A stretch of DNA of 24,012 nt, taken from a virus. The position numbers and the translations under genes are program-made. The notes below the pieces were generated by a model. It did no database searches, was not told the origin of the DNA, and saw only the letters and a program-made list of their open reading frames with translations. The DNA lies in the IMG/VR virus record IMGVR_UViG_3300048026_000076, positions 1-24,012 of that record; one strand, given 5' to 3'. Below, one piece after another: positions 1 to 17,554 of the stretch. Every line of letters starts with the position of its first letter. Positions within the stretch are counted from its first letter, which is position 1.

Positions 1-820
1 CCGGTAAAATTTCAGAATAACTAGGAAAACCTTTATCTCTATATTTAGATTTACCCATCATTCTTGAAAACTTAGTTCTGTTTTTACCTATGTTTGGAAA
101 TCCATTTTTACCTAAAAGTTGATTCATAGCATCCGGTGAATCTAACCCCACCCAATCAGGAAAAACTTTACGCAAATCCGCGTCAAATTCTATTCTATCT
201 TCTTTAGCTATTTTTAAAATAGGAATCTGAGACATCATAGGTTGTGCTACAGCCGTAGAAAAATCTGCGGAAGTGTCTTTCATTGAATTAAAAATAGCGA
301 CGGGGCTTTCTCCGGTAGCTTCTGCGGCTTTAATTATTTTGTCTTGCTGACCTTTAGCCACGCCAGCCATAGACATCCAACCTCTACCTGTTCCGGCATG
401 TTGTTGAGAAAACTTATTTCCAGCCTCCACCGGAGTTACGGATGGTAAATCAATACCACCTATTTTACTTAAAACACCTAAATTACTTTGATCACCCCTT
501 ACAGGTACAATCGGTCTGCCCACTATTTTTTCAAGATCAACTGTTTGCCTGTCGCCAATGTTTGCCGGAGTAAAAACAGTTTCATCCATACCCGCTTCAG
601 ACAAAGACTCCCTGTAATTAAAACCAGATGATTGTTCTCTAGCCTTGTTGTATTTAGTAAAAGCAGTTTTTACGGCTGTCGGGTTTTGAACAGACTCGTC
701 GGTTAAAAAACCAAGGCGAACAAGCCTCCCCAACGGAACCGACTCAGCTTCTTGAGACTGCGTAGCCGCTACTATTGGTGCGCTTGCTTTTGCCAAACCT
801 TTAAGAAAACTAGCTCCCAT
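1..820 (-). CDS. Partial large virion/ejection-type protein (C-terminus beyond left edge)
   Basis: Translating the minus strand from an ATG at 820 gives an open frame with no stop to the window edge, at least 273 codons. It begins MGASFLKGLAKASAPIVAAT. The start overlaps the stop of the upstream gene as TAATG, so the two are probably translationally coupled. The visible part is soluble-looking, mixed in composition and has no transmembrane segment. A distinctive conserved-looking stretch lies near residues 220-265, containing FPDWVGLDSPDAMNQLLG followed by a basic KNRTKFSRMMGKSKYRDKGF segment. I have only an impression that similar modules occur in very large internal proteins of marine phages; this is unverified. 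Position at the end of the ejection-protein block suggests a virion-internal role, by inference. It is a real gene because the frame is stop-free over 820 nt and fits the coupled operon. Confidence 0.8.
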   Translation of the reverse strand, partial: MGASFLKGLAKASAPIVAATQSQEAESVPLGRLVRLGFLTDESVQNPTAVKTAFTKYNKAREQSSGFNYRESLSEAGMDETVFTPANIGDRQTVDLEKIVGRPIVPVRGDQSNLGVLSKIGGIDLPSVTPVEAGNKFSQQHAGTGRGWMSMAGVAKGQQDKIIKAAEATGESPVAIFNSMKDTSADFSTAVAQPMMSQIPILKIAKEDRIEFDADLRKVFPDWVGLDSPDAMNQLLGKNGFPNIGKNRTKFSRMMGKSKYRDKGFPSYSEILP

Positions 821-1743
821 TAATCTTCTCCGCTCATAAGTAAAGCCCCGCCAGCCGCTGTGGCGCCAAGTAAAGCGGGGTCTGCCCCACCAAACTGTAC
901 GCCGTCCCTTGTAAACAAACGAGGGTCACCTTCGGGTATGTATTTTGGATTCTTAGCTACAAGCGTGTCACCTATCTGGATCACACGGTCGGCGCCTTCT
1001 AATGGCTTACCGTTTTTTATATCGTAGAAAGCTCCAGACTTTTGTGGGTTAGCTCCAACCTGAATAACATTTTTTTGTCTCATTAATTTATTCATGTCTT
1101 CGACAATGTTAGGGTTGTTTTGGTACTCACCGGTCATCATGTGAAACGGGTGTTTGTTTGTTTTGTTTGTCGCAACACCCAAAGCCGCGTCAGGGTTAAC
1201 ACCAAAGGTTACATTTTTTAAATCACTGCCGCCGCCGTAACCCATAACGTCTGTTTGTTTTGCGGGGTTGTGCAGTGTCTCAACGTACTCGCCTTTGTTT
1301 GTGTAGGCGGGTATGTCTAAGCGAGAGGAAACCTGTGTTCCATCTGGAATGTTAACAGTGCCGCCTTTACCGGTTAGACCTGTTTTAAAAACCTTTTTAC
1401 CGACACTAGCCAAAGCTTTATCAGTAGGAACAACCTCGGGTGCTGATGTGGCCGGAGACTTAGCTCTGTTAGTCAGCCACCAGTCACGGTACTCATCAAA
1501 AGTCATACTGCCTTCTTCGACTTTTTTAACAAGACTCATAGCCTCTAAGTCTTTACCAGTGTTGGCGTTAGGATTTGCCGACATGGTGCCACGCATATCA
1601 AGCATTTCTTCTTCGTTTCTGAAACCGCCAGCGGAAAGTACGTTATCTTGACGCGCTTGTTTTTCAGCCGCAGACAAATCCTTTACTTTTTTCATATCGT
1701 AAAAGTTTTCTACTATTCTTGTTGCCGCTTTAAAAACGCTCAT
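820..1743 (-). CDS. Unknown protein of the internal/ejection block, 307 aa
   Basis: I do not recognise a named family. The N-terminal third (about residues 1-100) is charged and helical-looking. The middle (about 128-215) has a compact, Gly/Pro-punctuated domain beginning with a VNIPDGTQVSSRLDIPAYT segment, followed by YVETLHNP and by a FGVNPDAALGVATNKTNKHP stretch. That layout resembles small globular domains embedded in large multi-domain phage proteins. The C-terminus is hydrophobic (DPALLGATAAGGALLMSGED), possibly a short membrane-active helix. The ATG at 1743 lies 2 nt past the upstream stop, and the stop overlaps the next ATG (TAATG). Context suggests a virion protein delivered with the DNA or part of the ejection apparatus. 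This is inference from position and composition only. Confidence 0.8.
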   Translation of the reverse strand: MSVFKAATRIVENFYDMKKVKDLSAAEKQARQDNVLSAGGFRNEEEMLDMRGTMSANPNANTGKDLEAMSLVKKVEEGSMTFDEYRDWWLTNRAKSPATSAPEVVPTDKALASVGKKVFKTGLTGKGGTVNIPDGTQVSSRLDIPAYTNKGEYVETLHNPAKQTDVMGYGGGSDLKNVTFGVNPDAALGVATNKTNKHPFHMMTGEYQNNPNIVEDMNKLMRQKNVIQVGANPQKSGAFYDIKNGKPLEGADRVIQIGDTLVAKNPKYIPEGDPRLFTRDGVQFGGADPALLGATAAGGALLMSGED

Positions 1744-1745
1744 AC

Positions 1746-2348
1746 TTAGTTGCCGGCTCGGTTATTAAGAAAATCGTCCACGCTTACTGTTTCAACAGGG
1801 GAGTATAAACTACCGTGAGTAAAATCCATAGGTTGGACGTCATTTAATTTTGGCAGGTTTGGATCTGCGTTTATAACATCTTCAACGGCTTGGTTTTTTT
1901 CTTTTTCAAACTGTATCGCTTTTTCCTCGGTGTCCGTTAAAGCTCCGCCTCCGTCATAAACGTAAGGTATTCCCACGTCAGAACCCGTGTCGACTGAGTT
2001 TAACATCCCAACGGAAGGGTTGTTAGTAAATTGGTTAACGCTTCTAAAAGAAGATATTGGGTCGCCCATAGACACCGGCGAGTAAGCACTGTGCTTGGAT
2101 ATGTTTGGGTCGTCACTAGGATTAAATAAACCATCAAGACCCGTACCCTTGGCGAAACCAGATTGACCAAAGGCAGAACCTTTGTAAGCGTCTGTTATTC
2201 CCCCCGTTATGTCTTTTGATTTTGCGCTAAAAGCTTTACTGACTTGGTTTATAGGATCAGTTATGCCAGCTAAAGCAGAACCCGCCTCACCCAAAGCCGC
2301 CATTGTGTTAGCGCCCATACCCTGTAACGCCGCTAAAAATTGCATCAT
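1746..2348 (-). CDS. Unknown Ala/Gly/Ser-rich protein, 200 aa, ejection block
   Basis: The product starts MMQFLAALQGMGANTMAALG, a small-residue amphipathic or membrane-prone N-terminal region (about residues 1-32). A Gly/Ser/Asn/Asp-rich, probably flexible middle follows, then an acidic C-terminal half. Two consecutive ATG codons are available (2348 and 2345). The first makes an ATGA overlap with the upstream stop; the second overlaps it too. There is no recognised catalytic motif. Its size and composition fit the small internal proteins of short-tailed phages that leave the capsid ahead of the DNA (the P22 gp7 role), but no sequence identity to such a family can be claimed. Confidence 0.75.
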   Translation of the reverse strand: MMQFLAALQGMGANTMAALGEAGSALAGITDPINQVSKAFSAKSKDITGGITDAYKGSAFGQSGFAKGTGLDGLFNPSDDPNISKHSAYSPVSMGDPISSFRSVNQFTNNPSVGMLNSVDTGSDVGIPYVYDGGGALTDTEEKAIQFEKEKNQAVEDVINADPNLPKLNDVQPMDFTHGSLYSPVETVSVDDFLNNRAGN

Positions 2349-4282
2349 TCTGCTAATACTCCTTTACCATCTGTGTCTTTGTCAAAAACAGCGTTGTAAA
2401 CTTTTTCTAAACCGTTTGCAGAAGCTATGTTAAGGCCGGCTCTCTGCCAATCTTTTAAAGCCTTAGCGTCAGTCGGCGCCCTCATAGCCCAATCCCTCAA
2501 AGCCTTACTGTTAAAACCTTTACCAGCTAAGTAAGTTGTTAAAAGACCAGCCATAGCGGGAGCAGACGCAACAGTTAAATCACCAGTTAACAGACTAGCG
2601 CCAATCAAACCCACTGACGCTAACCCACTTTGCACAGCCATAGTTCCAGCCGTGTTAGATCGGTTTACGTTTTGAGTTACATCTCTAGCGTTTTCAGCAA
2701 AAACTCTAAGGTCTTTTAGTATTTCTTTTTGCGAGCCCGAAAACAATATATCCTGTGAGGCTTGGGGTATAACATCAGTAGATGTTTGACTTAACATTCT
2801 CTCTAACGATAAAGCTGTTTCTTCTGCGTTTTGACCTCTAGGCGTTGCTTGACCAAGATTTTCCATTAAAGCACCACCGGCACTGTCGGGAACCATACCC
2901 GCGTCTGCTGATCTTGCAAGGTCGCTAGGCCGTTTAGTCGCTTGGCTTTTTAAATTTTGAAAAACAACTTCAGGCGCTAAATCACCTCTAGCGTTTTTAG
3001 TAAGCGGATCAATGACGTCTCTAAAAACTTTTGAGCCCTCACTGTAAAAACCATCCGCCCTTTGCCAAGCTTTGTATGCGTCAACACCCACTTCCTCAGC
3101 AACCAAACCCATGTCACTTGATAGGGCAGAGTATATTTTTTTAAGGTCTGAATCCATAGCGCCAGCTAGGGTGTCAGATTTACCACTGCTTATTAGGTCG
3201 CCTATCTTTGTACGCAAACTTTTTAAATCTCTATACGAAATTTGGCTTAAGTCAAGATTAGCTAAATCATACATAAGACCTTTGTTCATTAAATTAGCTA
3301 AGTCTTCATTTCCAAATGCGGATTTAAGATCAGCCGTAGCGGAAGAAAGGTTTGGCGTGTCTATTAAACGGTTAGGGTCAATAAAATCATCTACAGCGTT
3401 GTAAAGTTTATCTGCTTCGCTTTTAAATGTGTCTCTGGTTGCGTTAGCTATGGCTATCATTTCAGAACCAGAACTTGTTGGGTCTGCACGTCCACCGCCA
3501 GCGTTAAAGAAATCGTCTATTGATTGTCTAGCACTATCTATAGCCTCTTCACCTCTTTTTCTAGCTTTACCGGCGGTAAGAAAAAGACCGGACAAGGCCG
3601 CTTCTGTTTTTTGCACAATAGGGCTGTTACTTATCATCCCCAGTGTTGGCTGAAAGCCTCTGCGGTTTGCCGCTTCTATCATTGGGTTGTTAGCTACAGA
3701 AGTTCCAAATCTAGACACAGCAGGTTTTGCCGCGTCTATTGCCTTGTCAATAGGTAAAGCGTTTAATACAGTGTTCAAACCAATGTTTTTAGCTTGATCT
3801 CCGGCTGATCGCGTGTCTGTCGCACCCGTCAAAGCCCTAACACCTCGGTCGTAAAGCTCTCCACCTAAAGTAGCGCCAAGTCCGGCTCCGCCGTAAGCCC
3901 CCACAGGGTTCATAGTAGCCGCGCCGCCCAGCAAAAAACCACCTGTGCCGCCTATCATTTCCGGTATAATACGCCCTTGCTCAATAAAATCACCGGTATC
4001 AACGCCTCTCGGGTTGTGTATTCTTGGCGTTCCGTTCTCGTCAATGTAAGCGTAGTTTCCATCGCCATACGGGGTGGCCGTGGGGTATCGACTTCTAAGT
4101 GTTGAAAGCTTATCTTCAGGCGTTTGCGCTGTCGAAACAGCGGCTCTAAGATTTAAAGCAGAACCGCCAGAGTTTAAATTTTCATAAGGCGTTTGCTGAA
4201 GAGATTGTCTTTGCTTGTTAAGCGCCAACTCTTTTCTTCTAGCCTCTATTATTTTAGGATCTATAGGTACTAAAGTTGTCAT
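2345..4282 (-). CDS. Probable DNA-ejection / internal virion protein, 645 aa
   Basis: This is a large, mostly helical protein. The N-terminus is charged (residues 1-30). A glycine-rich hydrophobic stretch follows at about residues 108-140 (PEMIGGTGGFLLGGAATMNP). A long helical body with many Ala, Asp, Lys and Ser residues occupies about 180-540. A second hydrophobic Ala/Gly/Leu segment lies near 550-590 (SGLASVGLIGASLLTGDLTV). Two membrane-prone segments in a large helical protein of the virion operon are typical of pilot or ejection proteins that insert into the cell envelope (P22 gp16/gp20 and T7 gp15/gp16 functions). Function is therefore inferred from architecture and position, not from a motif. 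ATGA overlaps link it to both neighbours. No lytic transglycosylase motif is evident. Confidence 0.75.
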   Translation of the reverse strand: MTTLVPIDPKIIEARRKELALNKQRQSLQQTPYENLNSGGSALNLRAAVSTAQTPEDKLSTLRSRYPTATPYGDGNYAYIDENGTPRIHNPRGVDTGDFIEQGRIIPEMIGGTGGFLLGGAATMNPVGAYGGAGLGATLGGELYDRGVRALTGATDTRSAGDQAKNIGLNTVLNALPIDKAIDAAKPAVSRFGTSVANNPMIEAANRRGFQPTLGMISNSPIVQKTEAALSGLFLTAGKARKRGEEAIDSARQSIDDFFNAGGGRADPTSSGSEMIAIANATRDTFKSEADKLYNAVDDFIDPNRLIDTPNLSSATADLKSAFGNEDLANLMNKGLMYDLANLDLSQISYRDLKSLRTKIGDLISSGKSDTLAGAMDSDLKKIYSALSSDMGLVAEEVGVDAYKAWQRADGFYSEGSKVFRDVIDPLTKNARGDLAPEVVFQNLKSQATKRPSDLARSADAGMVPDSAGGALMENLGQATPRGQNAEETALSLERMLSQTSTDVIPQASQDILFSGSQKEILKDLRVFAENARDVTQNVNRSNTAGTMAVQSGLASVGLIGASLLTGDLTVASAPAMAGLLTTYLAGKGFNSKALRDWAMRAPTDAKALKDWQRAGLNIASANGLEKVYNAVFDKDTDGKGVLAE

Positions 4283-5619
4283 TGTCTCACATCCACGTCT
4301 GTTCTACTTCCGTCATCGTTAATAACGTAAAAACCAAGTTCATCTTCGTAATAGTCTTGGCCGTCGTCTGATGTTCCAACGGGTATAGGTGCGGCTTTTT
4401 CTTGCGGCCTGTACTCAGAGAAAACATCATTACCTAAAAAGCGTTGACCTAAACCGTTTTCATCCGAAACACCAAACATGCCAAGTTTATTAAGAGCAGA
4501 CGATCTACCGGCGTCATAGGTAGCCATGTTAATTTGCATTAATTCGGTAGATACATTTCTTAAATCCTCAATAATTTTAGCAGGTAAAAAATTACCTTCC
4601 TTAAATTGTCTTTCTAACATTTTAACTTTGTCTAATGCCGCCCCCGCACCTGCTACAACTCGGTATTCAGAATCACGAACAACTGAAGTTGGGTCAAGTT
4701 GTTTCATAAATTGAAATACAGCCGCAATATTTCCTACAGGGCTGTCTGCGTCAAGCGCGGCAATGAGTTGCTGATATTTTTCAATAGAGTCTCTAAAGTT
4801 ATCGGACTTAAACCTTTTTGCAACCTCATCAACCTCTGAGTATGTGTTTAGATTCATAATAACAGGTTCAAAGTCTCCTACAGGATCAATTCGTATAGCC
4901 TTACCCGTCGCACTTACATTATATTCACCAAAAATCTTTTTAAACATTACGGGGTCTTGTCTTGATTTATCGTAGGTGCCTTTTCCGTAAGTCCCATCTG
5001 CCCAGCTTCTAAAAGTTTTGTCTGCCTCAGTCATACCGGCAAAAGCCGAAGCTTGATTTAATCGAGTTTGGTTTTGAAAGTTAGTTATTCTGTTTTGATT
5101 TAACTGCTCAAGGTAAGAAGCCCTTGTCTGCCGCTGGTTGTCTGCCGCTTGGTATACAGCAGTTCGCATACCTTCTGCGGCTAAAAACTGTTGCCGGTAA
5201 CCGGCGTCAAGTTTTGCAGAAGGGTCGTATCGGCTTGTGTCCTCACCACCTAGCCAAAACAAGGGAGACAAAAACAACCTACCAGTGTCGGCTAACGTGT
5301 CGCCTATTCTAAACCCAACACTGTTTCTAATTTCTTTGTACTTATCCTCAGCCATCTGCATCCTAAGCTGAGTGTCTTTATCTTTAGCTTGAGCAAGCAT
5401 CATAGAAGGCGTAACAAATTTATCACTATCACCCACCCTAACCAAACCAGCGTTTAGAGCATCTCTCTGCTTTGAAGCTCCGACAACATGTATGCCTTTG
5501 TCTTGAGCGTACAACTGCTGAACAGTTGCCACTTGGTTAGAGTCAGCAGTGTTAAACCCCTCTAAAGCTTGTGGGTTGTTTTCGTCTAACTTACCTATTG
5601 AATCAAAAAAACCAGCCAT
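4279..5619 (-). CDS. Probable internal virion protein, 446 aa
   Basis: The product is a hydrophilic, largely helical protein starting MAGFFDSIGKLDENNPQALE. About residues 70-200 are rich in Gln, Ala, Arg and Asn with few Gly or Pro, consistent with long helices. One moderately hydrophobic stretch (DTGRLFLSPLFWLGGEDTSR) lies near 111-130. The C-terminus is acidic and Tyr-rich (DDGQDYYEDELGFYVINDDG). I do not recognise a family. The ATG at 5619 is preceded by a GGGA Shine-Dalgarno-like sequence about 9 nt upstream, and the stop forms an ATGA overlap with the next gene. Position between two other ejection-type proteins suggests it is packaged in the head or belongs to the ejection complex. That role is inference. 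Confidence 0.75.
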   Translation of the reverse strand: MAGFFDSIGKLDENNPQALEGFNTADSNQVATVQQLYAQDKGIHVVGASKQRDALNAGLVRVGDSDKFVTPSMMLAQAKDKDTQLRMQMAEDKYKEIRNSVGFRIGDTLADTGRLFLSPLFWLGGEDTSRYDPSAKLDAGYRQQFLAAEGMRTAVYQAADNQRQTRASYLEQLNQNRITNFQNQTRLNQASAFAGMTEADKTFRSWADGTYGKGTYDKSRQDPVMFKKIFGEYNVSATGKAIRIDPVGDFEPVIMNLNTYSEVDEVAKRFKSDNFRDSIEKYQQLIAALDADSPVGNIAAVFQFMKQLDPTSVVRDSEYRVVAGAGAALDKVKMLERQFKEGNFLPAKIIEDLRNVSTELMQINMATYDAGRSSALNKLGMFGVSDENGLGQRFLGNDVFSEYRPQEKAAPIPVGTSDDGQDYYEDELGFYVINDDGSRTDVDVRQ

Positions 5620-5631
5620 AACTATTTCCCG

Positions 5632-6690
5632 TTAACCGAAGCTAAAGCCTCTGCTTTTGCTACTAGATTTACTTGTCGAATCGCTAAGAACAGTAGGATC
5701 GCCAATAATGTTTTTGTAAAACTCAGTGCCTTGGTACGGCGCCATTTCATTAGCAAACTGATTGTTAAACTGCTCTTGTTGGTAACCACGCATGTAATCA
5801 CCAGCGCCAAACTGGTTTCCAAAGCCACTAGCGGCAATGTTTCCGCCAGTAGATATGTTATTAACACCCCTAGCGCCCATGTTTGCCGCCATGTTAGCAC
5901 CAAACTGTTGGTTCTGTTGGTTTCCAGTAAAAGCGTTCATGCCCATATTCATACCGGCGCCATACATATTGTTAAAAGCGCCAGCGTTAGCAAGGTTGGT
6001 TTGCTGGTTAAAGCCTGCGTTTTGAGCCGCACGTTGCGCTTCTACATTAATAGCGTTGTTGTATGCCTGACCTCTAAGACCAGCTATAATATCACCGGCT
6101 CTGTCTCCAGCGCCTCTAACAGCAACGCCTTCCATCATACCCGCTCGACTAGACCCACTGTTACCAGTGCCTGCCGCCGCAGAGCCGATACCTGTCAGTG
6201 TTTGCTCGTTTAACACTCGACCCACGTCTCTTGTTGCCGCGTCTATTTGCGAGTTAAGAAGATCATTATTAATGTAGTTGTTTAAATTGTTTTGGTCAAA
6301 ACCCATGTTAACAGCGGCGTTAGCGTTTGCCGTGTTACCAGCGGCAAGTTGACCACCCGTTAAAGCGGTTCCCATACCGGCGGCGGCTGTCCCGCCCATA
6401 GCGTTGTCGGCGTAACCCATAGCGGCGTCAGACCCACCCATAAGATTTTGACCTTGATTCATAACCGCTTGACCCGCGCCGACTTGCTGTCCTCCAAGGG
6501 CGGCTTGGTTGTTGATTCCGGTTTGTATGTTTTGGTTTAAACCCGCCAGTTGTTGTTGAGGCATTCCTGACTGATATAGGTCACTCGCCCCACCCCGAAC
6601 CTCGTCAAGATACGGCTGTTGATTAGGATCAACAAAAGTCTTTGCCGTTTGACTAGATTTGCTACTACTACTACTTAATCCGAATGCCAT
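5632..6690 (-). CDS. Gly/Ala/Asn/Gln-rich virion protein, likely ejection component, 352 aa
   Basis: The protein is low in complexity: Gly, Ala, Asn, Gln and Met dominate about residues 40-330, with recurring NQQ, MG, AAG and GAG patterns. The N-terminus (MAFGLSSSSSKSSQTAKTFV) and C-terminus (SDSTSKSSSKSRGFSFG) are both Ser/Lys-rich tails. Near residues 165-200 is a Gly/Ser-rich turn (GTGNSGSSRAGMMEGVAVRG) within an otherwise helical-looking region. Such proteins are common next to the tail genes of marine short-tailed phages and are usually found in virions, but I cannot assign a specific role. An AAGGTG Shine-Dalgarno lies just upstream of the ATG at 6690. The compositional bias creates several long antisense open frames here, which are not genes. 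Confidence 0.78.
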   Translation of the reverse strand: MAFGLSSSSSKSSQTAKTFVDPNQQPYLDEVRGGASDLYQSGMPQQQLAGLNQNIQTGINNQAALGGQQVGAGQAVMNQGQNLMGGSDAAMGYADNAMGGTAAAGMGTALTGGQLAAGNTANANAAVNMGFDQNNLNNYINNDLLNSQIDAATRDVGRVLNEQTLTGIGSAAAGTGNSGSSRAGMMEGVAVRGAGDRAGDIIAGLRGQAYNNAINVEAQRAAQNAGFNQQTNLANAGAFNNMYGAGMNMGMNAFTGNQQNQQFGANMAANMGARGVNNISTGGNIAASGFGNQFGAGDYMRGYQQEQFNNQFANEMAPYQGTEFYKNIIGDPTVLSDSTSKSSSKSRGFSFG

Positions 6691-7286: not shown

Positions 7287-8351
7287 CTAATTGATAGTAA
7301 CCGTCACGCCGGAATTTATCGTGGTTGTTGCTCCTTTAGTGATGTTTATAAAAGAAGAGTAGCTGGAGTTTACTGATACCACGGTGTCGACTAAAACCCA
7401 GTGATTAGGGTCAACCCTTTCCCATATATAGGTAGTAAAATAAGGAGGCATGTTGTTATGCGGTTGACCACCCCCCTTAACATCACTCCAATTATGCTCC
7501 ATAACACTTTCATCAGTGCCTGATGTACCATAAAGAGCGTAGTTATCATCTGTTCCGTATGAATCCCTTGGTATTCTTAAATTGTGTGAGTGACTCGGCA
7601 TTTCATTTTCTATCAACGTGTGTGTTTTATCTCCGCCTGCTTTTCTTGCAGAGTTAAAATCGCTATCTCCACTGTCAACTCCGACTAAAGTTCTCCCCTC
7701 CACGGATTGAACCCAATAACCATTAAAACTAGTGTTAGGATTAAATGTGCTAGAAACGGTAAGATAAATAGCGCCGATAGGGTATAGAGCGTCTAAAGTC
7801 TGCGTCCAAGTTTTGTAGTCACTTAGAGCAGTGCTTATTGACGTGCTTATTGCCGTGTTCATACCTGTGGTGTTAGTGTAATCAGACAATGCGGTAGATA
7901 TTGCAGTACCCATGCCGATTGTTGTGGTGTAATTATCTAAATTACTAGCTTCTTTTATTCTTTTATTTACGCTACCTGTTAGCGAGTCAGCGCCGTCTAT
8001 TAAATTAATTCTAGTTTCTAATGCCGGCAAAAACTCCGTGGTGTCTAACTGATCTTGCAGTAAAGTAACTATAGCATTGGCTCCGGCTTGTGTGTCTGGT
8101 ATGTCTACTCTAGACCAAGCGTTACCCGTGTAAAGATACAAACCTGCACCACTAGATGGATTCCAATCAGTGCCGTCTGCGTAAACAATGTCTCCAACTT
8201 GAGGTTTAGAAGGCTCTTGGTGTAAAACCGGCGTGTTGGTGGACGATTTTTCAGATGTCAAAGCGTTTGAAACTCTTGTCAGCTCGTTAAAAACCCAACG
8301 AACTATGTTTTCGTTAGTAGATAAAGACACCATTTGAGGTTTATAACTCAT
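7287..8351 (-). CDS. Tail fibre with collar-like (gp10 C-terminal type) receptor-binding domain, 354 aa
   Basis: About residues 1-110 form an N-terminal attachment region with a small domain near 50-85 (QVGDIVYADGTDWNPSSGAG followed by LYLYTGNAWSRVD). Residues 141-180 carry two imperfect repeats built on the word ISTALSDY, probably a short coiled or beta shaft. Residues 189-312 are a collar-like domain: LYPIGAIYLTV, then an EGRTLVGVD segment, HTLIENEMPSHSHN, and GGGQPHNNMPPYFTTYIWER. The MPSHSH and PHNN words are the hallmark histidine motifs of this fold, known from T4 gp10/gp12-type fibre tips. About 37 residues follow the domain (residues 318-354), ending in a Thr-rich beta segment, an unusual extra tip. 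It overlaps the upstream nozzle gene by ATGA. Likely role: host adsorption. Confidence 0.8.
   Translation of the reverse strand: MSYKPQMVSLSTNENIVRWVFNELTRVSNALTSEKSSTNTPVLHQEPSKPQVGDIVYADGTDWNPSSGAGLYLYTGNAWSRVDIPDTQAGANAIVTLLQDQLDTTEFLPALETRINLIDGADSLTGSVNKRIKEASNLDNYTTTIGMGTAISTALSDYTNTTGMNTAISTSISTALSDYKTWTQTLDALYPIGAIYLTVSSTFNPNTSFNGYWVQSVEGRTLVGVDSGDSDFNSARKAGGDKTHTLIENEMPSHSHNLRIPRDSYGTDDNYALYGTSGTDESVMEHNWSDVKGGGQPHNNMPPYFTTYIWERVDPNHWVLVDTVVSVNSSYSSFINITKGATTTINSGVTVTIN
7812..7931 (-). repeat. Imperfect tandem coding repeat in fibre shaft
   Basis: These bases encode residues 141-180 of the collar-domain fibre. The words TTTIGMGTAISTALSDY and TNTTGMNTAISTSISTALSDY occur back to back, with an extra STSI insertion in the second copy. 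The repeat is clear in protein and diverged in DNA, so it is an old structural repeat rather than a recent duplication. It probably forms the shaft between the attachment region and the tip. Confidence 0.6.
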
Positions 8352-9946
8352 CGACCGGAAACCTCTCTCACGTCAACATCCAGACCCGTTATGTTCCAAA
8401 AATTAGAACTTTCGTTGCTTTCAAAACGCAACGCTAAATACCTACCGGATGTTCTAACGTCTATTTTATGGTCTTGATCTATATTGAAAACATTAGTAGA
8501 GTACCAACTCACGGGATCCTGTGGTGTGTTTGAGTACCCCACCCGTATAGTCACACTGCCCTCGCCCCGTATCTGAGGCATTATTCCCATGACTTGTTTT
8601 ATGTTGTTGTTAGCCGTGTTTAGAACAGTGTCTAAATCTATTTTAGTAGCCTCCAAAAAACAATTTACGCTTGATCCCGAAAACCCCCTACTGTTATTCA
8701 TGATATACAGTTTACTGTTTGTGTGGTCTACTGAATAGAGAAAAATATCTTCGGCAACTGCATTTAACGAGGAGTTAGACCACCATTTAGTACTAACGCT
8801 GTAAGGTAAAGTTTCAATTACAGGGTCATCCCACGTTCCCTCAACACCGCCGCCACTCATAGCGTCCCCGTGTGAAAGGGATCGAATGTTTGGTAAGTCT
8901 ACAAAAGTAAAAGCGTCATTATCCCAGTTGTAAACAAGGCACTTGTTTGGAGAGTATTTTCCGTCAGTAGCGTCTTTAACGGCGCCTTGCACAGCGTAGC
9001 AAATCCAAACTTCTGAACGAGAAGCAACTGACTCGCAAAAAACGCTTTCTGTATCTATTAAACCTTTGTAAAACTCGTCTTTTACTTTTAAGCTAGACAA
9101 GCTTTTTTTAACATTTCCGTCGTGAACGTATATATCATTTTGTCCTACTACAAGGTGTTTTCCTTCCCACGAAGCGCAAGCGCCTCTGCTTATTATTCCG
9201 TCGTCACTAAATATTTCTCTAAAAGAAAAAACTAACGGCGCTCCGATAAAATCCATTGCGTACACACCGCGCTCGGCATATATAATTTGAGTGTTTCCAA
9301 GTGTTAGTTGGTCAAGTAAATTTCCGTTTTTGCCGCCAAGCTCATTAAAACCAGCAAGATTTGTTGTAGAAGTAACGTCATAGCTTGTGGGTACGCTAGA
9401 CGGATCAAACTCATCAGACCAACGAACTCTTGTGTTGTAATCACTGCCGCCGCCAGAGGTGTCTGTATACCCCGCCATTACAAGAAACGACTTGTATGGT
9501 TTTACGCTTTTAGTAGATAACGTGGAAGGCCAATTTGCTAAGTTGGAAAAATTACCGTTACTTGATAAAGTTGTTGTGTTTATATACTGAGGCACGTCAG
9601 AGCTATTATTAAAAATAATTCCAGAACCTATCTGCTCCGTTTGCCACATTGATGTGTTCGAGTAACCAGTACCGACATTCGTCACACTTGAGCCGTTGTA
9701 CCTGTAAATGTTGTTTCTTGATCCAATAAAAAGGTTATTTGATCCGGTTTTTAAAAACCCAGCGACAGTTACGGGGGCGTTAGGTATAGTGATTCCCACA
9801 TCGGTGTGACCCAGTGTTTTTCCTATAGCGCCATTTTCAAAAGAAACATTGTTTCCAGACGGAAACTGAGTAAGCTCTACGTCGTAAGGATTTTTATCTG
9901 GCACCAAACCTCCGGCGCCTATGTTTCTTAAAGGTATGTAAGCCAT
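8348..9946 (-). CDS. Tail nozzle/hub candidate (P22 gp10-like beta-propeller type), 532 aa
   Basis: The N-terminus contains YIPLRNIGAGGLVPDKNPYD and then LTQFPSGNNVSFENGAIGKT. The body has repeated blade-like patterns: FIGSRNNIYRYNGSSV, NTQIIYAERGVYAMDF, HLVVGQNDIYVHDGNVKKSL and KCLVYNWDNDAFTFVDLPNI. Such repeats are typical of the beta-propeller tail hub and nozzle proteins of short-tailed phages, for example P22 gp10 (packaged DNA stabilisation) and the SU10 nozzle. The C-terminal part (about 440-532) is beta-rich and includes SGRYLALRFESNESSNFWNI, a pattern seen at the end of many such proteins. It would cap the tail below the adaptor and hold packaged DNA. The gene is coupled to both neighbours (TAATG upstream, ATGA downstream). 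The nozzle assignment is moderately sure; virion structural protein is very likely. Confidence 0.68.
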   Translation of the reverse strand: MAYIPLRNIGAGGLVPDKNPYDVELTQFPSGNNVSFENGAIGKTLGHTDVGITIPNAPVTVAGFLKTGSNNLFIGSRNNIYRYNGSSVTNVGTGYSNTSMWQTEQIGSGIIFNNSSDVPQYINTTTLSSNGNFSNLANWPSTLSTKSVKPYKSFLVMAGYTDTSGGGSDYNTRVRWSDEFDPSSVPTSYDVTSTTNLAGFNELGGKNGNLLDQLTLGNTQIIYAERGVYAMDFIGAPLVFSFREIFSDDGIISRGACASWEGKHLVVGQNDIYVHDGNVKKSLSSLKVKDEFYKGLIDTESVFCESVASRSEVWICYAVQGAVKDATDGKYSPNKCLVYNWDNDAFTFVDLPNIRSLSHGDAMSGGGVEGTWDDPVIETLPYSVSTKWWSNSSLNAVAEDIFLYSVDHTNSKLYIMNNSRGFSGSSVNCFLEATKIDLDTVLNTANNNIKQVMGIMPQIRGEGSVTIRVGYSNTPQDPVSWYSTNVFNIDQDHKIDVRTSGRYLALRFESNESSNFWNITGLDVDVREVSGR

Positions 9947-14559: not shown

Positions 14560-15161
14560 TAATATCCCCTAAACTCTACCGTAATCTCATCATTCAATGC
14601 CCACTTCAGCAAATCGCCAGATGAATTATTAAATCCTGACCCCAGCAGTCTGCGAAATTGAACTCTATGGTTATCTGTCTCACCGCTAACACTGCTCTGG
14701 TCAATTGGATCGCCATAGGGGTTAATTAGATACCAAGTAGATGCTGGAAAACTTGCCGTTACTAATCCTGAATTTGCCGCAGTATGATTGATATATCTAA
14801 CATTATGCCAATAGTTGTCTTTTATCTCTTGCTCAGTATCTCCAGAAGGTGGCGCACCCTGACCTAGATATTTTAAATCTATGACGAAAGCGTTAGATGA
14901 AACGCCAAATCCATTAAAGTTTTCATCAAATATACCTGTGCCAACCGAGTTTGAATTACTGGGGGCAACTAAGCTAACTGTAAGGCCATTAGTTAATCTA
15001 AAATCACTAGATATGGTGCTTATTTTACTTGAATCATTAATATTATTAAAAGTCGAAAGAGAAATCCCTGCGTTAGTTTGATAATTTGCAGTAGTACCAG
15101 CATCGCAGGTAAAGCTAAACCTAGCAATCAACCCTGAATCTGCAACAGCGCCAGAACTCAT
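14559..15161 (-). CDS. Unknown beta-rich protein of fibre module A, 200 aa
   Basis: The product is rich in Ser, Asn, Gly, Thr and aromatic residues, with alternating hydrophobics and no transmembrane segment. It starts MSSGAVADSGLIARFSFTCD and contains FGVSSNAFVIDLKYLGQGAP and WYLINPYGDPIDQSS. It ends in a FRRLLGSGFNNSSGD loop and ITVEFRGY. This looks like a beta-sandwich virion protein, plausibly a fibre tip or carbohydrate-binding element. It overlaps the 798-aa fibre stop as ATGA and is followed by a TAGTG overlap, so it belongs to the same translational unit as the fibre. Specific function is not recognised. Confidence 0.7.
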   Translation of the reverse strand: MSSGAVADSGLIARFSFTCDAGTTANYQTNAGISLSTFNNINDSSKISTISSDFRLTNGLTVSLVAPSNSNSVGTGIFDENFNGFGVSSNAFVIDLKYLGQGAPPSGDTEQEIKDNYWHNVRYINHTAANSGLVTASFPASTWYLINPYGDPIDQSSVSGETDNHRVQFRRLLGSGFNNSSGDLLKWALNDEITVEFRGY

Positions 15162-17554
15162 ATCACACCAGAGCCAAATATAATGATTTCATTATCAGCA
15201 GTAACCGTTAGCTCGGCAACACCGCCCTTAGATAAGGTAATTGTATTAGCTAAACTTGCAACCGTAGAGCCGTTTAATTGTTTAAATTGACTTGCGCTTA
15301 CTCTATCAAAGGTTAGCGTATCTGTTCCTGCATTGACAACAACCCAAGTATCACCTAGATTGCTTGATGCTGTGACATTAGGAAATTTCAAAGTAACAGC
15401 GCCACCAGTATGCACATACTTCTTGCTAATGTTAGAAGTCATATCGCTAATAGCGGCTGAACCTACTACAGTAGTTGGTGCAACAAATCCGATGTCAGAA
15501 GTAAGTGCTACTGTTCCTGTTGCTGATGGCAGGGTAAGTGTGATGTCACCGCTTGCACTTTCTTGGATTGTAGTTACAACGCCACCAGCATCTTTTATTC
15601 TCAAATCACCTGTAATTTCAACGCCATCTGTTCTAGTTACAAGTTTTATATTACCCTGATTAGACAATCGTGCAACATCGCTAAACGTACCTATTATTTC
15701 TTGGCCAGCGTCATTCTTTATTAAAACATTTTGCCCTTTGATAACTAAATTATCACTACCAGTAGCACCAGAGGGTTGTTCTATAAATGACGTTGCACCA
15801 TCTGAATATATTTCTAAGTCACCGCCAGCACCAAGAGTAATCTTTTCATTATCACCCATCGTCAAGGCGTCAGCACTTACAGTGCCTGTTACGGTTATGC
15901 CGTTTTTGTCTACATCTAAGATAGTCGTAAGCGTTCCAGCAACACTTGGTCGAAAAAGAAAAGAACCATCTTCATCGTTTTCAGTATAATCTTCTGCACG
16001 ACCTAATATTTCAGCAAAGGTTGAATTACCACTGTTAGAGTTTTTTGCATCAAAATGCATTTGACCTATGTTAGAAGCACCGCCTACTATTCTGTTTCCC
16101 GTTCTTGTAAATGTTAAGTCAGGCGAAGCAAGAGTGGCCGTTTCACTTGTTCTTATTTGCAACCCTGTTCCACCACCAGTGCCGTCAATTAAGACACCAT
16201 TAGAAGTAGCACCAGTGTTGAGCGTTGTTGAGCCATCTACAGTTAAACCATCAGCAGTTACAGTGCCGTTTACACTTATACCTGTGGCTGTAGTATTCAA
16301 CTTAGCATCAGAATCATTATTACCGATACTTCCGTAATACAGAGCTACCGAACCTGAGCTACCTGAACTAGCTACAATCCTTCTATTTTGCCCACCGCCA
16401 TCTTTGTCACGGACAACAAAAGCATCTGCATCAATAACTAAGTTGCCGCCACCAGCCTCATCAATGTATGTGTGATTGAAGCTTGCGTCAGTGTAAATTG
16501 TTAATGCTGTACTGCCATCTGTTCTTAGGGTTTGCAGAGATTCGTTGTTTCCTAATCTAAGCCCATCGCTAGTTACAGTACCAGATACAGTTATGCCTGT
16601 TTCTGTGGTTGCTAACTTAGTGCCTGTTCCAGATGCTCCTTGCCAGTTAAGACTTACGTTATCAGCATCACAGGATATAAGAGTTGCATCTGCATCATTC
16701 CTTGTCTCTACGTTCTGCCCTCGTATAATTAAACTTGTAGTTCCTGATCCTGAAGGTTGCTCAATGAAAGCGTTAGTGCCGCCAGAAAAGATTTGTAAAT
16801 CTGGTGTACCTCCGTTACCTGCACCTATCTTTATGTATTCGCTGTCACCTAAAGTAAGCCCGTCAGCATTTATAGTACCTGTTACGTCTATACCTGTATT
16901 AGTTGTGGTAAGTTTAGGATTATTAGCCCCATGTTTCAGTATAACTGCTCGGCCAGCATTTTGAACCTGCATTATCAAGTTACTGTTATTAGCTACAAGT
17001 ACACTATTGTTTTCATCTACGTGTTGAAGTCTAAGATCATAGCCAGTGCTATTGGGCTTGGCTATATCAATATAACCGCCATCAGTGCCAGATACTTCGA
17101 TAATACCGTAATCGGTACTTCCTCCAGTTGCTGTACTTTTGACCTCAAGTTGAGCGAATCCTGTAGAGCTTTTTATTTGACTTAAAGTGTTGCCAGTGCC
17201 TGCGTCTACAGTAAGAAGAGTTGTGTTACCGCTAAAAGTTGTGTTACCGCTAAAAGTTTTGTTGCCCGCTATAGTCTGGTCGCCAGTTAGCTTAACAACT
17301 GAAGTGTCGAGAGCTTGCAAGTTTATTCCGTTTACAAGTCCTGCGGTTGCAAGGTTTCCGTTAACCGTTAAAAGACCTGTACCCAAATTTAAAAGATTAG
17401 GGTCAAATATGTTTCCCATATTTGTGGTAGATATTTTTATACTGCCCATAAAACCAGTTTCAGAAGATACTTGCCCAGAAACATTTATGTTTTGGAAAGA
17501 TATTGTATTGCTTATAGGATTGTAGTTAGATAGGTTTTCGTAAAAACTAGCCAT
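15158..17554 (-). CDS. Large repeat-built tail fibre / adhesin, 798 aa
   Basis: About residues 1-120 are an N-terminal region with fibre words (GLLTVNGNLATAGLVNGINL and the tandem FSGNTT). About 121-650 is the shaft. It holds five copies of a GIxVxGTVxADGLTLGDNE-type word starting near residues 221, 320, 425, 552 and 644, each heading a unit of about 92-127 residues. Units one and four share extra words (LQIFSGGTNAFIEQPSGS against LEIYSDGATSFIEQPSGA, and GQNV followed by NDA). About 690-798 is a C-terminal beta domain with TWVVVNAGTDTLTFDRVSAS and a Gly-Ser-Gly ending. There is no intramolecular chaperone or peptidase motif that I can see. It follows the adaptor gene by 3 nt. Likely role: trimeric fibre or spike for host recognition. 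Confidence 0.82.
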   Translation of the reverse strand: MASFYENLSNYNPISNTISFQNINVSGQVSSETGFMGSIKISTTNMGNIFDPNLLNLGTGLLTVNGNLATAGLVNGINLQALDTSVVKLTGDQTIAGNKTFSGNTTFSGNTTLLTVDAGTGNTLSQIKSSTGFAQLEVKSTATGGSTDYGIIEVSGTDGGYIDIAKPNSTGYDLRLQHVDENNSVLVANNSNLIMQVQNAGRAVILKHGANNPKLTTTNTGIDVTGTINADGLTLGDSEYIKIGAGNGGTPDLQIFSGGTNAFIEQPSGSGTTSLIIRGQNVETRNDADATLISCDADNVSLNWQGASGTGTKLATTETGITVSGTVTSDGLRLGNNESLQTLRTDGSTALTIYTDASFNHTYIDEAGGGNLVIDADAFVVRDKDGGGQNRRIVASSGSSGSVALYYGSIGNNDSDAKLNTTATGISVNGTVTADGLTVDGSTTLNTGATSNGVLIDGTGGGTGLQIRTSETATLASPDLTFTRTGNRIVGGASNIGQMHFDAKNSNSGNSTFAEILGRAEDYTENDEDGSFLFRPSVAGTLTTILDVDKNGITVTGTVSADALTMGDNEKITLGAGGDLEIYSDGATSFIEQPSGATGSDNLVIKGQNVLIKNDAGQEIIGTFSDVARLSNQGNIKLVTRTDGVEITGDLRIKDAGGVVTTIQESASGDITLTLPSATGTVALTSDIGFVAPTTVVGSAAISDMTSNISKKYVHTGGAVTLKFPNVTASSNLGDTWVVVNAGTDTLTFDRVSASQFKQLNGSTVASLANTITLSKGGVAELTVTADNEIIIFGSGVI
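15602..16894 (-). repeat. Multi-copy coding repeats in the fibre shaft
   Basis: Five repeat heads (residues 221, 320, 425, 552 and 644 of the fibre) lie in this span. The words are GIDVTGTINADGLTLGDSE, GITVSGTVTSDGLRLGNNE, GISVNGTVTADGLTVDGST, GITVTGTVSADALTMGDNE and the degenerate GVEITGDLRIKD. Copies one and four remain alike for roughly 70 more residues, suggesting duplication of a larger block. DNA copies are diverged. Confidence 0.75.
17220..17255 (-). repeat. Exact 18-bp tandem repeat, two copies
   Basis: The plus-strand unit gttgtgttaccgctaaaa occurs at 17220-17237 and again at 17238-17255. A third, mutated copy follows (gttttgttgcccgctata). The unit is six codons, so it encodes the FSGNTT word in frame in the large fibre and could gain or lose units without breaking the gene. 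Confidence 0.85.

What the first reader, a model, noticed from the sequence alone, without database searches (positions are those of the whole stretch)
1..1743. Left-edge genes with embedded globular domains and unknown role
The 307-aa protein and the cut frame after it have ordered domains (VNIPDGTQVSSRLDIPAYT; FPDWVGLDSPDAMNQLLG) unlike the low-complexity ejection proteins upstream. They may be parts of a larger multi-domain protein family split into separate genes here, possibly effectors delivered with the DNA.
Basis: inference. Interest (0 to 1): 0.5.

Follow-up and report, generated by a model that had tools for sequence, protein, structure and literature searches.

The report
Split phage proteins beside ejection genes
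Two neighbouring genes at the edge of a marine virus fragment each encode a domain that other viruses join, together or with toxin-like enzymes, into large proteins thought to be injected with the viral DNA, so they are probably pieces of an interchangeable injected-protein kit whose exact job is unknown.

Summary
W307 (820-1743, minus strand) and W273 (2-820, cut by the record's end) each carry an ordered domain. D1 (in W307) is a distant relative of the unexplained Pfam family Phage_L5_gp82. D2 (in W273) matched no Pfam, PHROGs or NCBIfam model.

Both recur in larger phage proteins with polyvalent-type domains: ADP-ribosyltransferase (ART) with each; pyrophosphatase, Zeta toxin and LPD23 with D2; LPD38 with D1. 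In four viral contigs D1 and D2 are fused in one protein, three times in the window's gene order.

The genes sit at the end of the ejection-protein block of a LUZ24-like podovirus core. Of 69 related loci, 33 show this region: D2 is there in 10, ART in 10, both fused in two. Packaging and activity are untested.

D2's confident model (relative L195, pLDDT 92) resembles EVE/YTH modified-base readers, but only at Z up to 6.4, and an EVE profile comparison was negative. D1 gave no useful PDB match in the one look that ran.

The parts
820..1743 (-). W307: 307-aa protein; helical N-terminal part plus the D1 domain
   Evidence: model pLDDT 82.9; relatives
919..1449 (-). D1 domain (W307 residues 99-275), distant relative of Pfam PF25735 Phage_L5_gp82
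   Evidence: HMM boundaries; PF25735 at 17 bits, E 7.9e-5, below the 27-bit cut-off; two relatives above the cut-off
2..820 (-). W273: 273 codons, ATG at 820, 3' end cut by the edge of the record; linker plus the first part of D2
2..574 (-). D2 domain, profile positions 2-199 of 315
   Evidence: hmmsearch 247.5 bits, residues 83-273
818..831 (-). Gene junction: TAATG overlap (818-822) with GGAG Shine-Dalgarno-like motif (828-831)
   Evidence: sequence read; W273 frame open 35 codons upstream with no ATG, GTG or TTG
1746..2348 (-). g200: 200-aa protein preceding the slot; by position and size like the 126-188-aa genes of most sister loci (sequence relationship not shown)
2345..4282 (-). g645: putative ejection-block protein (phrog_36512, unknown function), relatives in 9 of 69 sister loci
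4279..5619 (-). g446: putative ejection-block protein (phrog_13634, unknown function), relatives in 18 of 69 sister loci
5632..6690 (-). ej352: DNA ejection protein (phrog_4287), relatives in 59 of 69 sister loci
8348..9946 (-). vsp532: virion structural protein (phrog_3287; relative of LUZ24 gp56), anchor used to find sister phages

Best explanation
W307 and W273 are the two halves (D1 and D2) of a polyvalent-type cargo protein, kept here as two overlapping genes at the end of the ejection-protein block of a LUZ24-like podovirus core. They are most likely translated together late in infection, packed in the virion with the ejection proteins, and ejected into the next cell with or ahead of the DNA, where they act on a host target in the first minutes. 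Shown: the domains, their fusions, the slot and its exchangeability. Inferred: packaging, ejection and action on the host. D1's likeness to small free-standing phage proteins suggests that it acts as an independent unit inside the cell rather than as a virion brick. D2 may be a nucleic-acid-binding (PUA-like) module; that step is weak.
For: Fusion: D1 and D2 in one protein in L091, L092, L093 (D1 then D2) and L145 (D2 then D1); the BFVD protein A0A6J5L605 matches both models. Company: of 25 D2 proteins scanned, ART-PolyVal 4, InPase 1, Zeta toxin 1 (with two AAA models), LPD23 1; of 23 D1 proteins, PF25735 10, ART-PolyVal 2, and LPD38, ResIII, Helicase_C_4, DEAD, methyltransferase and DUF3990 1 each. 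Some ART matches are below Pfam's cut-off; those I saw above it are L120 for D1 and L178 and L198 for D2. Slot: 33 of 69 sister loci show at least 6 kb past vsp532; D2 in 10, ART-PolyVal at E <= 0.001 in 10, 4 above cut-off; by my comparison of coordinates all ten lie inside the slot ORF. Sister contig L198/L244, with vsp532 and ej352 about 50% identical, has ART fused to D2 in this slot. W273 residues 25-120 align with the stretch after ART in L198, and 18-120 with L211. In other lineages D2 ORFs directly precede the portal gene (L187, L188, L190) and D1 proteins lie between portal and coat genes. The matching position in LUZ24 holds gp49-gp53: gp49-gp52 annotated as virion structural proteins, gp53 noted as a phage particle protein. 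Published precedent: solo LPDs near structural genes (PMC5512222, section 29).
Against: No mass spectrometry or assay. Neither window protein has a recognised catalytic domain. D1 was found in 0 of 69 loci of the sister lineage and PF25735 in 0 of the 33 sister records, so the D1 half is not a regular tenant of this slot. The split D1-D2 pair was seen only in the window. W307 is the most divergent of 53 D1 sequences (34 of 54 conserved columns kept; median member 51 of 53), though the others were fetched with conserved motifs. Window ejection genes, D1 and D2 share no detectable similarity with LUZ24 gp48-gp55, so that comparison is positional.
Confidence: 0.6

Rival explanations
1. D1 and D2 are carrier or anchoring modules: they pack or thread cargo into the ejection machinery, while the swapped enzyme domains (ART, Zeta, InPase) are the real effectors. 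The window phage would then keep the carrier without an enzyme.
For: D1 and D2 recur while enzyme partners change; position in the ejection block.
Against: ART-PolyVal is in the slot of 10 of 33 sister records and only 2 of these also have D2, so ART proteins manage without it. D1-like proteins also occur as small free-standing proteins in Mycobacterium, Streptomyces and Bacillus phages (Foldseek).
Confidence: 0.22
2. They are ordinary structural parts of this phage's ejectosome with no action on the host.
For: Position and synteny with annotated LUZ24 virion proteins; one D2 relative in BFVD is named 'Structural protein' (Flavobacterium phage).
Against: The slot content is mosaic and exchangeable between relatives; partners are enzymes of the kind seen in polyvalent proteins.
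Confidence: 0.1
3. One fused D1-D2 gene has been broken in this record by a sequencing error or a recent frameshift.
For: The two frames differ and W273's frame is open for 35 codons upstream of its ATG; fused forms exist.
Against: The W273 start has a GGAG motif and a TAATG coupling; other complete D1 proteins, such as L089 and L132, also end some 35-50 residues after D1; there is no start codon in the 35 open codons.
Confidence: 0.05

Closest known systems
Polyvalent proteins of phages and conjugative elements (Iyer et al. 2017, PMC5512222)
   Same: Domains shared with proteins that carry ART-PolyVal, InPase, LPD23 and LPD38; gene lies among late virion genes; solo versions of such domains are described there
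   Different: Here the two domains are separate genes without any recognised enzyme; D2 matched no LPD model in Pfam
Pfam PF25735 Phage_L5_gp82 / phrog_586
   Same: D1 relatives score above the curated cut-off (L148 28.4 and L115 29.2 bits against 27); Foldseek matches in actinophage and Bacillus phage proteins
   Different: W307 itself scores 15-17 bits, below the cut-off; it has an added helical N-terminal part and sits in the ejection block; I found no stated function for the family
ART-D2 protein of sister phage contig L198/L244
   Same: Same gene slot, D2 47% identical to W273, similar linker
   Different: N-terminal ART domain fused to D2 instead of a separate D1 gene
EVE / YTH domains (PUA-like readers of modified bases)
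   Same: The listed rows with Z 3.1 or more for the D2 model are YTH domains or proteins that I recall as EVE-type (best Z 6.4, rmsd 4.0, 140 aligned)
   Different: D2 is twice as long, no profile similarity to EVE (hhalign probability 0.6%), Z below 8
LUZ24 (Bruynoghevirus) ejection block gp49-gp53
   Same: Same relative gene position after the gp56-like structural protein
   Different: No detectable sequence similarity of the ejection genes, D1 or D2

Membership tests
Polyvalent protein (Iyer et al. 2017) | Several domains of disparate activity in one polypeptide | tested here: not met
   W307 and W273 each hold one homologous domain found here; the fused relatives do meet it
Polyvalent protein (Iyer et al. 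2017) | Shares domains with polyvalent proteins | tested here: met
   D1 and D2 in proteins with ART-PolyVal, InPase, LPD23, LPD38
Polyvalent protein (Iyer et al. 2017) | Gene in the vicinity of late virion genes | tested here: met
Polyvalent protein (Iyer et al. 2017) | Packaged in the virion and injected with the DNA | not testable with these tools
   no proteomics at hand; position only
PF25735 Phage_L5_gp82 | Score above the curated cut-off of 27 bits | tested here: not met
   W307: 15 bits, 17 bits; relatives L148 28.4 and L115 29.2
ART-PolyVal PF18760 | ART domain present | tested here: not met
   0 matches in the window record, 10 in 33 sister records
EVE/YTH (PUA-like) domain | PUA-like fold | tested here: inconclusive
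   D2 model: Z up to 6.4 to YTH, 5.7 to PH1033 and MJECL36; Foldseek itself no match at E <= 0.001
EVE/YTH (PUA-like) domain | Profile similarity to EVE (PF01878) proteins | tested here: not met
   hhalign of the D2 alignment against 25 EVE proteins: probability 0.6%, reverse 0.4%; YTH profile not tested

The most novel reading that the evidence does not exclude
The slot is a polymorphic cargo cassette of LUZ24-like marine podoviruses: exchangeable effector domains, many in front of a common C-terminal delivery tag (proteins ending in SP followed by L, I or Y). D2 is a PUA-like reader of modified nucleic acid delivered with the genome, and D1 does a job that some phages pre-load into the virion and actinophages express after entry.
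Probability: 0.17. Interest if true: 0.75.

Novelty: new variant of a known kind. Interest (0 to 1): 0.5.

Why it matters
It links two domains of unknown function, one of them (D2) without a match in the Pfam, PHROGs and NCBIfam models searched, to a single exchangeable gene slot at the end of the ejection block, in which ADP-ribosyltransferase domains also appear. That makes one question directly testable in culturable phages of this type: does a podovirus carry a replaceable injected-effector slot, and by what signal is cargo chosen? D1 relatives were confirmed in 414 of 433 pattern-matched stretches of the viral collection, so its function would annotate many phage genes.

Tried and rejected
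Single-protein scans of viral contigs for W307 and W273 found nothing; alignments did. The five-member D2 alignment had no stretch conserved enough to search with. D2 in genome contigs: 30 stretches, no relative; D1: 6 loci in two MAG assemblies, which I take to be viral contigs (untested), so I do not treat either as a cellular family.

PDB sequence search: D2 none, D1 two matches up to E 1, the better 3dwo at 0.0029, which I take as chance. The D1 VIA look had 1 of 311 chains at Z 2.0 or more. The ordinary PDB Foldseek search for D1 was never run.

EVE homology of D2 by profile: rejected for now. A zincin reading of HExxH motifs in L223 and L246: MPTase-PolyVal rang in 0 of 34 records and nowhere in the controls, so untested rather than excluded. 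Function of L5 gp82: two papers found by search, passages only, said nothing on it (PMC11373665, PMC3203893). Virion proteomics for the D2 relative named 'Structural protein' in a Flavobacterium phage: two searches, none and one listed paper on airborne viruses that I did not open.

The SP[LIY] tail was noticed by eye and then counted in the same proteins, so its p-value is descriptive only; against a general D1 tag, 0 of 113 complete D1 ORFs have it (6 of 47 D2 ORFs). The GNAT-like stretch in L089 is my reading by eye, untested; the CHAP/lysin-like stretch in CRP-9 gp54 rests on my eye and a weak phrog_21357 match (E 0.04). The placement of L5 gp82 in the early arm of L5, and the labels EVE (PH1033, MJECL36, Rpa0253, THYN1), VcaM4I and Lon N-domain as PUA-like, are recalled and come from no call.

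Full report
What is there. The window is an entire 24,012-base virus record. Its genes run on the minus strand: a frame similar to large terminases, portal, scaffold, major head protein, virion and tail genes, a DNA ejection protein (ej352, 5632-6690), then g446, g645, g200, W307 (820-1743) and W273 (2-820), which is cut by the end of the record. By the gp56-like protein the listed phage relatives are Pseudomonas phages, LUZ24 among them, at about 30% identity (25 of 269 records listed); the portal also matches Pseudomonas phages and Pelagibacter phage HTVC106P at about 30% (15 of 300 listed). The two frames are longer than chance: the longest stop-free frame in 1000 shuffles of 1-2348 was 246 codons. 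Stop and start overlap as TAATG, with GGAG before the second start.

Two domain families. tblastn against 50,697 phage records gave three records for W307 and four for W273, all below 60% identity; the features under the matches are called hypothetical protein, once 'type I restriction enzyme' (in fact D2 plus InPase). Profile searches then defined D1 (W307 residues about 99-275) and D2 (W273 from about residue 83). D1 has 414 relatives among 433 pattern-matched stretches of viral contigs, of which the best 80 were kept in each of two calls. D2 has 33 among 107. In the 205 sequences held at that point, D1 was found in 165 ORFs and D2 in 47 (L001 is a copy of the window and some loci come from one contig, so these are not independent counts). 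D1 belongs to the neighbourhood of Pfam PF25735: 10 of 23 representative D1 proteins match it at E <= 0.001, L148 and L115 above its cut-off, while W307 stays below (15 and 17 bits against 27). The D2 regions scanned matched nothing in Pfam, PHROGs or NCBIfam at the thresholds used.

Fusions. Four ORFs hold both domains: L091, L092 and L093 in the order D1-D2, and L145 in the order D2-D1. L091 and L092 are close to each other and both run off the start of the stretch held. A fifth, A0A6J5L605, is suggested by Foldseek, which lists it for both models. Among those 205 sequences the window is the only place where the two are separate neighbours. The 113 complete D1 ORFs range from 172 to 3702 aa. 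Partner models seen with D2 in 25 proteins: ART-PolyVal 4, InPase 1, Zeta toxin 1 (plus AAA_33 and AAA_18), LPD23 1. With D1 in 23 proteins, besides PF25735: ART-PolyVal 2, and LPD38, ResIII, Helicase_C_4, DEAD, methyltransferase and DUF3990 1 each. ART, InPase and LPDs are domains described for polyvalent proteins (PMC5512222: abstract, sections 9, 23, 29 and 32, and passages); Zeta toxin I did not look up there, and a word search of that paper for PcfJ, mycobacteriophage, EVE, YTH and PUA found none. The paper also says that several LPDs occur alone near phage structural genes and may act in solo form, which is what the window shows.

The slot. Using vsp532 as anchor, 69 loci of the same lineage were found among 170 stretches; 33 reach at least 6 kb further. 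Judged by size and partial similarity (ej352 relatives in 59 of 69, g446 in 18, g645 in 9), the usual order is tail gene, ej352, g446-like, g645-like, mostly a 126-188-aa gene, then one variable protein. D2 is there in 10 of 33 (L208, L211, L228, L229, L231, L234, L244, L251, L262, L265; L228, L229 and L234 are near-identical, as are L262 and L265 over D2), D1 in none. ART-PolyVal is in 10 of these 33 records (4 above cut-off), 0 in the window; I compared coordinates by hand and all ten lie in the slot ORF. L244 (the contig of L198) and L251 have both. I assigned a slot protein by eye in 26 of the 33; four loci (L233, L237, L241, L266) have only small genes there and in three (L258-L260) the order is unclear. 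Slot proteins share pieces with one another in mosaic fashion. W273 residues 25-120 align with the stretch after ART in L198, and residues 18-120 with L211, whose own N-terminal part was not recognised as ART; so the gene boundary lies in the stretch between domains.

Virion context. In LUZ24 the corresponding block is gp53-gp49, in which gp49-gp52 are annotated virion structural proteins and gp53 is noted as a phage particle protein. The window's ejection genes, D1 and D2 share no detectable sequence with them. Elsewhere D2 ORFs directly precede the portal gene (L187, L188, L190), and the D1 proteins of MW202701, CRP-9 and CRP-207 lie between portal and coat genes. [quoted passage not shown] PMC8528129 (passages only) describes CRP-9 as having HMO-2011-type morphogenesis genes.

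Structure. D2 (L195 copy, 46% identical to W273) was modelled at pLDDT 92.4. Foldseek against PDB gave no match at E <= 0.001. The second look aligned 980 of 990 preselected chains; the listed rows with Z of 3.1 or more are YTH domains or proteins I recall as EVE-type, best Z 6.4, then a Lon protease at 2.5 (its N-domain recalled as PUA-like) and a virus capsid at 2.4. Because candidates were preselected, Z is below 8, and an EVE profile comparison was negative, I keep the PUA-like reading as a hint. D1 (W307, pLDDT 82.9) has no PDB relative worth naming in the VIA look; it matches BFVD proteins named for ART-PolyVal, Zeta toxin, lysozyme and PcfJ-like parts, and small proteins of Bacillus, Mycobacterium and Streptomyces phages (E 3.6e-6 to 3.7e-3). 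W307 shares the 16 columns that are invariant in all 53 D1 sequences, itself included, but keeps only 34 of 54 conserved columns, the lowest of 53; the others were fetched with conserved motifs, which exaggerates this.

How it most likely works. Shown: domain identity, fusion, gene slot, exchangeability. Inferred: late translation as a coupled pair, packaging beside the ejection proteins, entry with the DNA, action on a host target. A carrier role for D1/D2 is the main rival.

Novelty. Polyvalent proteins are known; a solo form is foreseen in print. I saw no description of D2 as a family, of the D1-D2 pairing, or of a mosaic slot in LUZ24-like podoviruses in the ten word searches of the held library; these were few and by word, so this is not proof of absence. 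LPD alignments kept only on the authors' ftp site were not read, so D2 may equal an LPD that Pfam lacks.

Noticed in passing
slot proteins of L211, L212, L213, L218, L231, L240, L248, L251, L255, L256, L257, L263, L269: 13 of 23 complete slot proteins end in SP[LIY], against 1 of 569 other complete ORFs of 100 aa or more in the same 26 loci (9 of 16 after dereplication); a possible delivery tag, counted after being seen by eye; 0 of 113 complete D1 ORFs have it.
   Followed up: partly
L255:16169-17284, L240:7745-8890, L213:11762-14110 and other slot proteins: A hydrophobic small-residue stretch followed by a motif such as TPEQAQA comes after the ART domain; it looks like a processing or membrane-passage site.
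   Followed up: partly
L002:8530-11514 and L003:7201-11388, downstream of D1: A second conserved module (DPVSGN..P.G....EVRDDI.A.LSEGE.V.PADVVR) follows D1 in these and other D1 proteins; no function named.
   Followed up: no
L223:12747-14600 and L246:10366-12003: Slot proteins with HExxH motifs suggesting a zincin-like peptidase; PF18818 did not ring anywhere, controls included.
   Followed up: partly
L152:1519-4362: D1 lies across two ORFs (373 and 557 aa), apparently an interrupted gene; not mended.
   Followed up: no
window 15158-17554: 798-aa repetitive protein with a phrog_13518 match (unknown function), in the tail region; unexplained.
   Followed up: no
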